Origin: a virus
Direction: 5' to 3' (one strand)
DNA: 23,788 nucleotides
IMG/VR virus record: IMGVR_UViG_3300042934_000092
Coordinates: 1 to 23,788 of that record
In this document: piece by piece, positions 4,069-23,788 of the stretch
Layout: each line of letters opens with the position of its first letter
Position numbering within the stretch: the first letter of the stretch is position 1
The notes under the pieces: model-generated
Databases searched by the model: none
Seen by the model: only the letters and a program-made list of their open reading frames with translations
Told to the model about the DNA's origin: nothing
Program-made: the position numbers and the translations under genes

Positions 4069-4202
4069 ACGTTCCTCGTGTTCGTGTCCCTATGACCATG
4101 TCCGGGTACTGCCAGCACCCGAGCGACCCGGAACACGCGGGTTGCGTCAGAGAGGGCTGCACATGCCCGTGCCACAACCTCAACGAACGGATCAAGACAT
4201 GA
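4065..4202 (+). CDS. Very small Cys/His-rich protein
   Basis: A GTG at 4065, overlapping the previous stop as GTGA, opens a 45-residue frame whose own TGA overlaps the next ATG. In-frame ATGs at 4092 and 4098 are alternative starts. The protein has a dense ligand set: C-x-H, then EHAGC, EGCTCPCH. This fits a small zinc site. The stop-start overlaps on both sides and the absence of any gap make it credible despite its length. Function unknown. Confidence 0.6.
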   Translation: MNVPRVRVPMTMSGYCQHPSDPEHAGCVREGCTCPCHNLNERIKT

Positions 4203-20030: not shown

Positions 20031-20555
20031 ATGGCAGATGTAGCTGACGTTGTTCCCGCCGCCATTGACGTCAAGGGGAACCTTGTCATCTGGTGGGTGG
20101 GTGGCGCGATTGCTGACCTGACCGCCCCGGGCAAGGTGCTCGTTTTTGACGCGGCAACCACGTTCCGTGTGACGCACTCGTTCACCCCGGGCGGTTTCGC
20201 CCTGGACGCCGACCAGGTGATTGACACTGACTCCCGACTCGGCCTCACGGTCGACCTGGAAGCCCTCGGTATCCGCACCGACACACTCGGCATGCTCGAG
20301 TACGTCGACTCCACGAACGCTTCTTCGGCGGCGGTAGTGCTGAAGCCGGTCGGTTCGGCCACGTCGATCTCGGGTTACTTCGTGATCCGCCGCAACGTGA
20401 CGAACACCACGGTTGCGACCGCGGCACAGAAGGTCTACACGATCCCGGTCACGCTGGGTACGCAGATCTTCCCCGTCACCCCGGATGGTAAGGCGCTCAT
20501 CAAGCAGCGTGCGTCGATCACCGGCCCGATCGTTCACGGCGTTATCGCGGCGTGA
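20031..20555 (+). CDS. Major tail protein
   Basis: The 174-residue product lies after the tail terminator with GAAAGGAAAGAAC before its ATG. It is rich in beta strands (VKGNLVIWWVGG, KVLVFDAATTFRVTHSF, TSISGYFVIRRNVTN, VYTIPVTLGTQIFPV) and Thr/Val, as expected for a tail tube subunit. It forms the stacked rings of the flexible tail. A perfect hairpin follows the stop, consistent with strong separate expression. Confidence 0.8.
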   Translation: MADVADVVPAAIDVKGNLVIWWVGGAIADLTAPGKVLVFDAATTFRVTHSFTPGGFALDADQVIDTDSRLGLTVDLEALGIRTDTLGMLEYVDSTNASSAAVVLKPVGSATSISGYFVIRRNVTNTTVATAAQKVYTIPVTLGTQIFPVTPDGKALIKQRASITGPIVHGVIAA

Positions 20556-20562
20556 CCTATCT

Positions 20563-20599
20563 CCTGACCCTGGGGTTCTCACCGTGCCCCAGGGTCAGG
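20563..20599 (+). terminator. 13-bp perfect hairpin after the tail protein gene
   Basis: CCTGACCCTGGGG (20563-20575) pairs perfectly with CCCCAGGGTCAGG (20587-20599), with an 11-base loop. It is followed by TTCTACC, without a clean T run. Stem strength and position suggest a terminator or transcript end that raises the tail protein dose over the downstream genes. Confidence 0.75.
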
Positions 20600-20634
20600 T
20601 TCTACCCTCCACGGTGAAGTAAACGGTGAACAGA

Positions 20635-21207
20635 ATGAACTTCAAGGAACAGTTGGCCGCGGCTCGTGCCGCACGGCCTACCAAGGATGTGGTGGTTGTC
20701 CTCGACGGCGCCGTATCTGCTGAGCGGGAGCGGCTGGAGAAGGAACTCGCAGCGGTTGACGTGAGCGACACTCGCATGGGTGTTGCGTCGCCGGCTGACG
20801 AGATCCAGAAGCAGCTTGACGAGCTCGCGGAACAGTCCGCCGACTCCCTCCTCACCATCCGTCTCACCCGTCTCCCCGGGCGTGACTGGTCGAACCTGAC
20901 GTCGAAGTGCCCGGTGCGGCCCGACGTTCCCATTGACCGTCACTACGGGTACAACTACGACGCCGCCTGTGAAGCTGCGGCACGCTACCGTGACACGTCA
21001 AACGTGGCGTACGGTGCACGGCTGGAGGGCGGCGAAACCGTCGACATCAGCGACGACGAGTGGGGTGACCTGTTCGACGTCCTGTCCGGTAGCGACATCG
21101 GTAAGATTCGTGACGCCGTGTGGTCGCTGAACGAGTACGAACCGCAGGAACGACTGAATGCACTGGTAAAAGGCTCCGGGGCAGCGTCGCGCTCCGTCAG
21201 CAAGTAG
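20635..21207 (+). CDS. Tail assembly chaperone (upstream product)
   Basis: The 190-residue protein from ATG 20635 (an in-frame GTG at 20626 is possible) lies between the tail tube and tape measure genes, the place of lambda G-type chaperones. It starts with a helix (NFKEQLAAARAARP), contains a conserved-looking SLLTIRLTRLPGRDW region, and ends SVSK. A second product reads on in the -1 frame. The two bind the tape measure and lead tail tube assembly; they do not stay in the virion. Confidence 0.85.
   Translation: MNFKEQLAAARAARPTKDVVVVLDGAVSAERERLEKELAAVDVSDTRMGVASPADEIQKQLDELAEQSADSLLTIRLTRLPGRDWSNLTSKCPVRPDVPIDRHYGYNYDAACEAAARYRDTSNVAYGARLEGGETVDISDDEWGDLFDVLSGSDIGKIRDAVWSLNEYEPQERLNALVKGSGAASRSVSK
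21165..21172 (+). promoter_or_regulatory. Probable -1 slippery site GGTAAAAG
   Basis: In frame, the codons are CTG GTA AAA GGC. The AAA codon can re-pair as AAA after sliding back one base, and the -1 frame then continues AGG CTC. GTA and AAA are unusual in this GC-rich genome, which points to a selected site. It lies 12 codons before the stop of the first product, and the -1 frame is open to 21587. It is not a full X-XXY-YYZ heptamer, so the exact slip base is inferred. Confidence 0.6.
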
Positions 21208-21587
21208 CTTTCGCCGCGCGCTCCGGGATCGCCCCACGGCGACTCTGGGGGTGGGAGCCACGCACGTTCTACGAGTACGACGCAGACGGACGCATGATCT
21301 CGTCAGTCGTCGAACCTGAGTGGGACGAAGAACAGGTCGACCTTGTCATCGCGGAGCAGATGGTTCGGAACCTGACCGGACCTAACGGTGAGTGGATGCC
21401 GGATGCGACGAACGACGAACTGTCTGACCCGATGAACTACTCCGGTCAGCGCCCGGTCGCCAAGGGGCCGTTCGTCAACTGGTACGAGAAGGCGCGCCTT
21501 GACGAGCAGGACGCCTACCGGAAGTCGCTGGGTGAGAACGGGAACATGAACGGCGTGTACTTCACCGTCGAGAAGTTCGAGTACTAG
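21171..21587 (+). CDS. Frameshift extension of tail assembly chaperone (G-T type)
   Basis: This -1 frame has no proper ribosome binding site or plausible own start near its 5' end, and continues the upstream protein after residue 179 with RLRGSVALRQQ, for a fusion of about 317 residues. The extension contains SGIAPRRLWGWEPRTFYEYDADG, a segment typical of actinophage T-type domains, then VEPEWDEEQVD and GPFVNWYEKARLDEQDAY. Lambda G/GT makes a minor fused form in the same way. Its stop codon overlaps that of the antisense lipoprotein gene (CTAG). Confidence 0.8.
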   Translation, partial: RLRGSVALRQQVAFAARSGIAPRRLWGWEPRTFYEYDADGRMISSVVEPEWDEEQVDLVIAEQMVRNLTGPNGEWMPDATNDELSDPMNYSGQRPVAKGPFVNWYEKARLDEQDAYRKSLGENGNMNGVYFTVEKFEY

Positions 21588-21886
21588 AACTCGTCGGCGT
21601 ATTCGTCGCAGTACGCGACAGATGCGGCTCCTGCAACACGGCCAGCTTCGGCGGCTGTCATCCCGGTCTCTTTGGCAATGCGGATGAACTCGGTGAGCCC
21701 TGCCTCGAATCCGCGGTCCTCAAGGATGTCGCAGACCTGACGGCCCAGTTTCGTCAGGTCTGCGGCGCCCGCGTCGGATAGCGCCGGCACTTCACGGACT
21801 GCGGTCACGTATGCGTCATCGACGCTGGGCGCCGCGCAGCCCGTGAGTAGCAGCACAGGGAACAGCACAGCAATGACGCGCTTCAT
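21584..21886 (-). CDS. DUF732-like secreted lipoprotein, antisense to the tail operon
   Basis: The 100-residue product reads leftward from ATG 21886. It begins with a signal peptide (MKRVIAVLFPVLLLTGC) whose LLTGC is a clean lipobox with C17 as the lipidated residue. The mature part has two Cys (C52 in RQVCDIL and C93 in VAYCDEY), helices with GFEAGLTEFIRIAKETG, and a C-terminal SVAYC, which fits the actinobacterial DUF732 pattern. It should be anchored outside the cell membrane, with C52-C93 perhaps disulfide-bonded. Opposite strand and location between chaperone and tape measure mark it as a moron-like insertion; superinfection exclusion is a possible role. Confidence 0.8.
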   Translation of the reverse strand: MKRVIAVLFPVLLLTGCAAPSVDDAYVTAVREVPALSDAGAADLTKLGRQVCDILEDRGFEAGLTEFIRIAKETGMTAAEAGRVAGAASVAYCDEYADEF

Positions 21887-21930
21887 GGCGCTGACTCTAC
21901 AACTCAAGACCGATCTAGCGGAGGTGTATC

Positions 21931-23788
21931 TTGGCCGACCGCCAGACAAAGGTCACGCTTACGGCGTCCGTCAATTCCTACATTGCCGACATGAAGCGGG
22001 CGCAGGACTCGACCGCGAAGGTTGGGGACGAGGCTGCTAAGGCTGCGGGGAAGCTTGAGAAGCAGCATCAGGCGATGACTGAAGTGGGCGCCGGCGTGGC
22101 GGCAGTTGGGGCTGTTGCCGCGGTCGCTTTCGGTATAGCGGTTGCGAAGTTCGCGGAGTTCGACGCCGCCCTAAGTAATGTGCAGGCGGCGACGCAGGAG
22201 TCTGCCGAGAACATGGGCAAGCTGCGTGAGGCGGCGCTTGAGGCTGGTGCTTCGACGGTGTTCTCTGCCACTGAGGCGGCGAACGCGATTGAGGAACTGG
22301 GTAAGGCCGGTCTGACGACTGAGCAGATCCTTGGTGGCGGTCTGACGGGTGCGTTGGATCTTGCTGCGGCGGGTCAGCTTGAGGTTGCTGAGGCGGCGGG
22401 TATCGCGGCGATCGCGTTGAAGCAGTTCAACCTTGAGGGTGAAGACATCCCTCACGTGGCCGACCTTCTCGCGGCTGGTGCGGGTAAGGCTGTCGGTGAC
22501 GTGAAGGATCTGTCTGACGCGCTCGGTCAGGTGGGTCTGGTCGCGAATGGTGCGAACCAGTCCATTGAGGACACGACTGGTGTGCTGGCGGCGTTCGCTG
22601 ACGCGGGTCTGCTGGGGTCGGATGCGGGTACGTCGCTGAAGGCGGCGCTGATCGCGCTCCAGGCGCCCACGGACAAGGCCCGCAAGATCATGGAGGAGTA
22701 CAACCTCTCTTTCTATGACACCAACGGGCAGATGTTGGCGTTCGATGAGATCGCCGGCCAGTTGGACGAGAACCTTGGTTCGCTGACTGACGAGACCCGT
22801 AACGCGGCTCTGGCGCAGATTTTCGGTAACGATGCGCTGCGTGTTGCGAACGTCCTGTACGACGAGGGTGCTGCTGGCATCCGTAAGTACATCGACCAGA
22901 CGAACGACTCGGGGTATGCGGCGAAGGTTGCCGCTGACCGGTTGAACAATCTGACCGGTGATGTGGAGAAGCTGGGCGGCGCGATCGACACCGCCCTCAT
23001 CAAGTCGGGTTCTGGTGTCAACGATCTTCTCCGGTCGATCACTCAGGGTGCGACGGGCATTGTCGACGCGATCGGTCAGCTCCCCGCGCCTGTGCTGGGT
23101 GTTGCCACTCAGATCACGGGCATTGTCGCCGCTGTCGGCCTCGTGGGCGGTGCGGCGCTGTTGGCTGTGCCGAAGATTGCACAGTTCAAGCTGGCGATGT
23201 CGACCCTGAACATTTCGGGTGCTTCTGCGGCTCGGGGTATCGGTCTGGCGACTGGTGCGCTGGCTCTTGCTGGTACGGCGTTCTCGATTTGGGCGCAGCG
23301 TCAGGCGGAGGCGACCGCGACGGCTTCGGAGTTTGAGGAGTCTCTGGATCAGACGACTGGTGCGGTCACTGACTACACGCGGGAACTGGTTGCGAAGAAG
23401 CTTGCTGAGGCGGGCGCGTTTGACGGTGCGAAGAACGCCGGCATCTCCCAGAAGGAGCTCACTGAGGCGATTCTGGAGGGCGGCGACGCTGTCGAGGATC
23501 TGCGGCAGAAGCTGTACGACTACGCCAACGGGAACCCGTTCGACCCGTCGATCGCGAACTCTGTGAACACGGTCAACGCACTGTCTGACGGGCTCGAGCG
23601 TGCCGACAAGAACCTTGAGGACCAGGCTGCTGCGGCTGATGTGTCGGCAGACAAAACCACGGATGCGGCGACTGCGTATAAGGATGCTGCGGCTCAGGCT
23701 GAGGAACTTCAGACGAACCTTCGGGAACTGATCGACACCATCAATGAGGCGAACGGGATCGGGCAGGACGCGGTCAGCACGAACGCCG
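21931..23788 (+). CDS. Tape measure protein (partial, 3' end outside window)
   Basis: The frame starts at TTG 21931, positioned after a strong GCGGAGGTG, and runs to the end of the window (619 codons). It contains a tape-measure core typical of TP901-type proteins: FAEFDAALSNVQAATQES (about 76-93), GASTVFSATEAANAIEELGKAGL, GLTGALDLAAAGQLEVAEAAG, and DTTGVLAAFADAGLLGSDAG. Hydrophobic segments lie at about 52-75, 393-415 and 434-456. It sets tail length and is threaded through the tube, probably with a role in DNA ejection. No other start in this frame has a ribosome binding site. Confidence 0.93.
   Translation, partial: MADRQTKVTLTASVNSYIADMKRAQDSTAKVGDEAAKAAGKLEKQHQAMTEVGAGVAAVGAVAAVAFGIAVAKFAEFDAALSNVQAATQESAENMGKLREAALEAGASTVFSATEAANAIEELGKAGLTTEQILGGGLTGALDLAAAGQLEVAEAAGIAAIALKQFNLEGEDIPHVADLLAAGAGKAVGDVKDLSDALGQVGLVANGANQSIEDTTGVLAAFADAGLLGSDAGTSLKAALIALQAPTDKARKIMEEYNLSFYDTNGQMLAFDEIAGQLDENLGSLTDETRNAALAQIFGNDALRVANVLYDEGAAGIRKYIDQTNDSGYAAKVAADRLNNLTGDVEKLGGAIDTALIKSGSGVNDLLRSITQGATGIVDAIGQLPAPVLGVATQITGIVAAVGLVGGAALLAVPKIAQFKLAMSTLNISGASAARGIGLATGALALAGTAFSIWAQRQAEATATASEFEESLDQTTGAVTDYTRELVAKKLAEAGAFDGAKNAGISQKELTEAILEGGDAVEDLRQKLYDYANGNPFDPSIANSVNTVNALSDGLERADKNLEDQAAAADVSADKTTDAATAYKDAAAQAEELQTNLRELIDTINEANGIGQDAVSTNA

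What the first reader, a model, noticed from the sequence alone, without database searches (positions are those of the whole stretch)
21584..21886. Antisense lipoprotein moron inserted between tail chaperone and tape measure
The only minus-strand gene of the window is a complete DUF732-like lipoprotein with clean lipobox, in a slot that is normally uninterrupted in siphophages. Its stop codon interlocks with the chaperone stop (CTAG). Surface lipoproteins of phages can block DNA entry of later phages, and being antisense would allow expression from a lysogen while the tail operon is silent. Leftward transcripts would also be antisense to the chaperone frameshift region.
Basis: partly seen in the sequence, partly recalled or inferred. 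Interest (0 to 1): 0.65.

Follow-up and report, generated by a model that had tools for sequence, protein, structure and literature searches.

The report
Reverse-strand lipoprotein gene beside tape measure
A Microbacterium-type temperate phage carries, between two tail genes, a backwards gene with its own promoter for a small surface lipoprotein, and many related phages keep a different small envelope protein in exactly that slot, most likely so that the dormant phage can shield its host from other phages.

Summary
21584-21886(-) encodes a 100-aa DUF732 lipoprotein (Pfam E 5e-8) with an invariant LTGC lipobox. It is conserved in the same slot and strand in relatives, including a Microbacterium prophage integrated at tRNA-His, and is under purifying selection (median dN/dS 0.12). 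A -10 box (TAGAGT) lies exactly 7 nt before the ATG with no Shine-Dalgarno, the signature of an actinobacterial leaderless promoter.

Among 49 non-redundant tape-measure relatives, 26 carry a reverse-strand lipoprotein or multi-TM ORF in this slot (control positions 0.65%). TANNNT lies 6-7 nt before the start in 22 of the 26, against 0.6 expected. Cargo families differ while slot, strand and promoter persist. So it is a moron slot with interchangeable envelope cargo, not a lone insertion.

The slot is not "normally uninterrupted": HK97 keeps its superinfection-exclusion moron gp15 there, and reverse genes there were already noted for Gordonia cluster DN phages.

Most likely function, inferred only: exclusion of incoming phages by the lysogen at the tape-measure/DNA-entry step. 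There are no expression or exclusion data. Antisense control of the chaperone is possible but unsupported.

The parts
21584..21886 (-). DUF732 lipoprotein gene, 100 aa plus stop
21836..21847 (-). codons of the lipobox LTGC (residues 14-17), invariant in 15 relatives
21605..21820 (-). DUF732 domain (profile match); AlphaFold2 model all-helical, mean pLDDT 86.6
21894..21899 (-). TAGAGT, -10 (TANNNT) box 7 nt before the ATG: predicted leaderless promoter
21887..21893 (-). CAGCGCC spacer between -10 box and ATG, shared with unrelated slot genes
21584..21587 (.). CTAG shared by the convergent stop codons of the lipoprotein and chaperone ORFs
20626..21207 (+). tail assembly chaperone, first frame (G-like)
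   Evidence: by position and synteny with annotated chaperones of Seahorse, Hestia and others
21120..21587 (+). tail assembly chaperone, second frame (-1, T-like)
21931..23788 (+). tape measure protein, N-terminal part (TTG start, GGAGG at 21920-21924); runs off the window
21900..21907 (-). TTGAGTTG, part of a GCTATTGAGTTGTC-like element near the tape-measure start in several relatives; role unknown

Best explanation
A moron in a recurrent cargo slot. SHOWN in sequence: between the tail chaperone and the tape measure gene (TMP) sits a leftward gene under its own predicted leaderless promoter (TANNNT 6-7 nt before the ATG). Here the cargo is a DUF732 lipoprotein; in related phages the same slot, strand and promoter carry other lipoproteins or small 2-3-TM membrane proteins. 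The phage type is temperate. INFERRED: because the promoter points against the tail operon and looks like a host housekeeping leaderless promoter, the gene is transcribed from the prophage while the late operon is off. The protein is exported, lipidated on the invariant cysteine and anchored on the outside of the cell membrane. There it interferes with the TMP-dependent DNA entry of superinfecting phages that use a similar tail, as HK97 gp15 and TP-J34 Ltp do.
For: Real gene. Own promoter: spacing histogram 6 nt 11 genes, 7 nt 11 genes, all other spacings from 0 to 25 nt 0-1; 21 of 26 against 0.57 expected, the window's own gene making 22; promoter-defined reverse ORFs in 30/49 slots against 6/1669 control anchors; TANNNTC[AG]GCG(N1-2)ATG in 10/49 slots and 0 elsewhere in 719 kb of strand. 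Envelope cargo: 26/49 against 27/4123 controls; 23 of 30 promoter-defined ORFs are envelope-like. Cargo swapped under the same promoter: L027 (different lipoprotein), L029 (3-TM by the script). Temperate: integrase plus 25-bp att repeat at the 3' end of tRNA-His in genome G037, with the gene inside. Precedent: HK97 gp15 in the same slot; gp15 and Ltp act on DNA injection and are escaped by tape-measure-region changes (PMC10883804; PMC3952083).
Against: No expression or phenotype data. DUF732 has no tested function known to me; no PADLOC match and no PDB fold match. One DUF732 phage protein (Troll4 gp76) slowed M. smegmatis growth when overexpressed (PMC7474061), so it might do something else to the cell. 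Some slot cargos are not envelope proteins (L105, L109, L119; Periwinkle gp17-19). Slot-protein type does not track TMP beyond ordinary divergence in a way that proves co-evolution.
Confidence: 0.55

Rival explanations
1. Lysogenic conversion unrelated to phage exclusion: the lipoprotein changes host envelope or fitness (stress, adhesion, nutrient or wall maintenance) and the slot is simply a safe place for independently transcribed cargo.
For: DUF732 lipoproteins also occur on Microbacterium chromosomes outside this slot. Slot cargos are very diverse. Same promoter evidence as for the best explanation.
Against: The strong bias to membrane or lipoprotein cargo next to the tape measure gene, and the HK97 gp15 precedent in the same slot, point more towards DNA-entry interference.
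Confidence: 0.3
2. Antisense regulation: the leftward transcript tunes chaperone frameshift or TMP expression, and the protein is secondary.
For: Convergent overlap with the chaperone; no terminator detected between them, so read-through is possible.
Against: Purifying selection on the protein; conserved lipobox; cargo replaced by unrelated envelope proteins of other lengths with strand and promoter kept.
Confidence: 0.07
3. Lytic-phase role: a membrane-bound helper of tail assembly, virion release or pre-lytic exclusion, transcribed by host RNA polymerase early in infection rather than in lysogeny.
For: A leaderless host-type promoter could fire on entry. Some slot-bearing phages were isolated as plaque formers (Arthrobacter and Microbacterium phages).
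Against: Not part of the late operon; absent in related functional phages (Powerpuff, AGM1); a truncated copy is tolerated (L015).
Confidence: 0.08

Closest known systems
HK97 gp15 moron (superinfection exclusion)
   Same: Same slot between frameshifted tail chaperone and tape measure gene; small envelope protein; absent in relatives.
   Different: gp15 is on the same strand as the tail genes, in an E. coli phage, and is not a lipoprotein; no sequence relation was looked for or seen. HK97 also has a 'reverse moron' gp23 elsewhere in its tail genes.
TP-J34 Ltp superinfection-exclusion lipoprotein
   Same: Phage-encoded, membrane-anchored lipoprotein of a Gram-positive temperate phage; expressed in lysogeny; target reported to be the tape measure protein (PMC3952083).
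   Different: ltp lies in the lysogeny module and belongs to another protein family with repeat domains; the present protein is DUF732.
Reverse genes between tail chaperones and tape measure of Gordonia cluster DN and Arthrobacter/Microbacterium phages
   Same: Same slot and strand: Periwinkle gp17-19, Seahorse gp19, Hestia gp18, Persistence gp17, Eileen gp17, Hum25 gp16, Auxilium gp18, Footloose gp15.
   Different: Cargo mostly small two-TM proteins or, in Periwinkle, not envelope-like; none annotated with a function; no promoter or class-wide analysis found in the papers searched.
DUF732 / PHROG 658 actinophage proteins
   Same: Sequence and predicted-fold family.
   Different: The weak hits to annotated phages are not in this slot (for example Streptomyces phage Daubenski gene 161, Bogota gene 42); function unknown.

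Membership tests
DUF732 (PF05305) lipoproteins | profile match above gathering score | tested here: met
   33.7 bits against cut-off 22.4; control genomes outside the family ring 0 of 14
DUF732 (PF05305) lipoproteins | export as lipoprotein (lipobox with N-terminal signal) | tested here: met
   MKR + hydrophobic stretch + LTGC invariant in 15 relatives; LPAM_1 match is weak and below cut-off
phage moron | inserted between genes that are adjacent in related phages | tested here: met
   Powerpuff and AGM1 have chaperone and TMP adjacent; L030-L032 lack a gene
phage moron | own promoter | tested here: met
   by sequence only:
phage moron | own terminator | tested here: not met
   no intrinsic-terminator-like site in 20400-22300; a feature of the classic lambdoid morons, not of all
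phage moron | expressed from the prophage | not testable with these tools
   needs strand-specific RNA-seq or 5' mapping
superinfection-exclusion proteins (gp15/Ltp-like) | blocks DNA entry of a superinfecting phage in a tape-measure-dependent way | not testable with these tools
   no phenotype; resemblance in slot and localisation only
superinfection-exclusion proteins (gp15/Ltp-like) | match to a known defence or Cor-type exclusion family | tested here: not met
   PADLOC none; PHROG Cor match E=0.09 covers only the signal peptide

The most novel reading that the evidence does not exclude
Many actinobacterial siphophages share a dedicated 'shield slot' at the tape measure gene: a conserved leftward leaderless promoter-start module under which small envelope proteins of unrelated families are exchanged, giving each prophage a swappable, tape-measure-directed entry block.
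Probability: 0.4. Interest if true: 0.75.

Novelty: new variant of a known kind. Interest (0 to 1): 0.55.

Why it matters
Many small actinophage genes have no function. Position, strand, promoter and cargo class now tie a whole set of them (lipoproteins and 2-3-TM proteins beside the tape measure gene) into one testable hypothesis, with isolated laboratory phages (Arthrobacter Seahorse, Hestia, Persistence, Eileen; Microbacterium Footloose) ready for assays. If right, the slot would be a catalogue of entry-blocking proteins acting in Gram-positive hosts, and the leaderless promoter a simple way to find such prophage-expressed genes in unannotated data.

Tried and rejected
Nucleotide search of the region against phage records: none. 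tblastn of the lipoprotein against phage records: none; with a relative as query only weak Streptomyces phage hits. PDB fold search: no match; the viral fold library returns mostly DUF732 proteins (best E 1.5e-3), confirming the family only. PADLOC: none. NCBIfam: only sub-cut-off hits, including a weak SLATT match for one 2-TM slot protein. Idea that the GCTATTGAGTTGTC-like element is the -35 box: rejected, because its distance to the -10 box varies; its role stays open. Idea that the spacer CAGCGC is a host-wide consensus for leaderless genes: not supported, as only 24 TANNNTCRGCG(N1-2)ATG sites were found in three host-related genomes totalling 11.2 Mb, both strands. Covariation of slot protein with TMP identity: homologous in 91-100% of pairs at 80% TMP identity or more and 3-5% at 50-70%, which is equally expected from shared descent. 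A first count was discarded because redundancy removal failed and long ORFs were missed; one search replaces it. Searches failed on input or holdings.

Full report
Observation. The minus-strand ORF at 21584-21886 is complete: ATG at 21886, 100 codons, stop sharing CTAG with the stop of the second-frame chaperone ORF. It matches DUF732 above the Pfam gathering score and PHROG 658. [quoted passage not shown] Upstream in the window lie replication and recombination genes (Erf, helicase loader-like, methyltransferase, RusA, exonuclease) and a head module, as in a temperate siphophage.

It is a gene under selection. Twelve close IMG/VR contigs carry it in the same place and strand. One of them (L013/L015) is truncated and has lost its promoter and the first 33 residues next to a homing-endonuclease-like remnant. 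Three more distant contigs carry it intact at 59-66% identity. The 15 intact sequences keep the lipobox LTGC and two further cysteines, C52 and C93, without exception. Pairwise differences fall at the third position of the minus frame, the median dN/dS is 0.116 in 66 pairs, and the plus-strand frames are full of stops. AlphaFold2 gives a confident all-helical domain (mean pLDDT 86.6) whose best matches in the viral library are mostly DUF732 proteins, with no match in the PDB.

Host and lifestyle. The same prophage type sits in a 4.37-Mb chromosome found by a search of the genus of Microbacterium thalli (G037; lipoprotein E=5.8e-57; chaperone and tape measure on either side). Its ends are a 25-bp repeat: one copy is the 3' end of a tRNA-His gene, the other lies 38.5 kb away. 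An integrase lies next to the tRNA, and the lipoprotein is inside the element. This supports a temperate phage of Microbacterium or close kin; the window itself is a 23.8-kb fragment without an integrase.

Promoter. In the window TAGAGT ends exactly 7 nt before the ATG and there is no Shine-Dalgarno sequence. TANNNT about 12 bp upstream of the start codon is the published signature of leaderless genes, which make up about a fifth of actinobacterial genes (PMC3160421). All intact relatives keep it, even where a roughly 770-bp insertion with HNH-type sequence separates the gene from the tape measure gene (L017, L023). No sigma-70 -35/-10 pair and no intrinsic terminator were found by consensus scan.

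A slot rather than a single insertion. Eighty loci fetched by tape-measure similarity and others were reduced to 49 with less than 80% identity in the tape-measure N-terminus. In 26 of them a reverse-strand ORF in the slot is envelope-like (lipobox with signal, or at least two hydrophobic spans); at 4123 control anchors elsewhere in the same loci the rate is 0.65%. These ORFs were chosen without regard to promoters, yet 21 of 26 have TANNNT 6-7 nt before an in-frame ATG against 0.57 expected by shuffling. The window's own gene, which that script's start rule missed, makes 22. The spacing histogram is 11 at 6 nt, 11 at 7 nt and 0 or 1 at every other spacing from 0 to 25. Conversely, choosing by promoter alone finds a reverse ORF in 30 of 49 slots against 6 of 1669 control anchors, and 23 of those 30 are envelope-like. 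Ten slots share the longer string TANNNTC[AG]GCG(N1-2)ATG, which occurs nowhere else in 719 kb of strand in these loci and is rare in host genomes. Under this shared start the cargo differs: DUF732 (window; L116, a distant member with Pfam E=3e-8), a different lipoprotein (L027), multi-TM proteins (L029, L085, L091) and others. Caveats: the membrane calls are simple hydropathy, control anchors are mostly coding, and the loci were gathered by tape-measure similarity, so the rates hold for this group only.

Characterised phages show the same. Seahorse gp19, Hestia gp18, Persistence gp17, Eileen gp17, Hum25 gp16, Auxilium gp18 and Footloose gp15 are single reverse genes in this slot, encoding small proteins with two hydrophobic spans. 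Footloose and Eileen have leaderless-type -10 boxes, whereas Seahorse, Hestia, Persistence and Auxilium have TATGAT with a short leader and a GGGGG-type ribosome site. Powerpuff and AGM1 have no gene there. [quoted passage not shown] Periwinkle's three genes there are not obviously envelope proteins. The searches of open-access papers found no promoter analysis or function for the slot.

Mechanism. HK97 carries its moron gp15 in precisely this slot. gp15 and the streptococcal phage lipoprotein Ltp both block DNA injection; [quoted passage not shown] PMC3952083). The tape measure protein is also what the membrane nuclease SNIPE senses (PMC13190303). By analogy, the most likely role here is exclusion at the DNA-entry step by a membrane-anchored protein made from the prophage. 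Shown: gene, selection, promoter signature, slot, cargo class, temperate type. Inferred: transcription in the lysogen, lipidation, exclusion, tape-measure target. The slot-type versus tape-measure identity curve fits but does not prove a functional link.

Antisense idea. The leftward transcript would have to run about 380 nt beyond the lipoprotein stop to cover the frameshift overlap. No terminator was seen, so this is possible, but selection on the protein and the swapping of cargo argue that the product is the protein.

Verdict. Real and well supported as a moron-type gene. As a kind of thing it is a variant of known tail-module morons. The new part is the class-wide pattern of strand, leaderless promoter and interchangeable envelope cargo beside the tape measure gene.

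Noticed in passing
window 21900-21907; L057, L059, L062, L063, L117, L082 at -27 to -37 of the tape-measure start: A GCTATTGAGTTGTC-like element on the minus strand just upstream of the tape-measure ribosome site is shared by phages with different slot genes; its distance to the -10 box varies and its role is unknown.
   Followed up: partly
L017 and L023, between lipoprotein promoter and tape-measure start: About 770 bp of inserted reverse-strand HNH-like sequence separates the promoter from the tape measure gene; Footloose has an HNH gene (gp16) in the same place and L119 a reverse HNH-like ORF in the slot, so homing endonucleases also target this junction.
   Followed up: partly
L015 3764-4010 (L013): Truncated lipoprotein gene without promoter and first 33 residues next to a remnant resembling the L017 insertion: gene decay in a relative.
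   Followed up: partly
L130 slot protein (MTQTGVDHRKRGIQAMRIG...): Weak, sub-cut-off NCBIfam match to a SLATT membrane domain (E=3.6e-4), a domain found in conflict systems.
   Followed up: no
L068-L072 (Microbacterium-genus genomes): Host chromosomes carry DUF732-like lipoproteins outside this phage slot, possible source or target analogue of the phage version.
   Followed up: no
window 20626-21587: The chaperone's two frames overlap at 21120-21207 with a GGTAAAAGG run that may serve as a -1 slip site; not tested across relatives.
   Followed up: no
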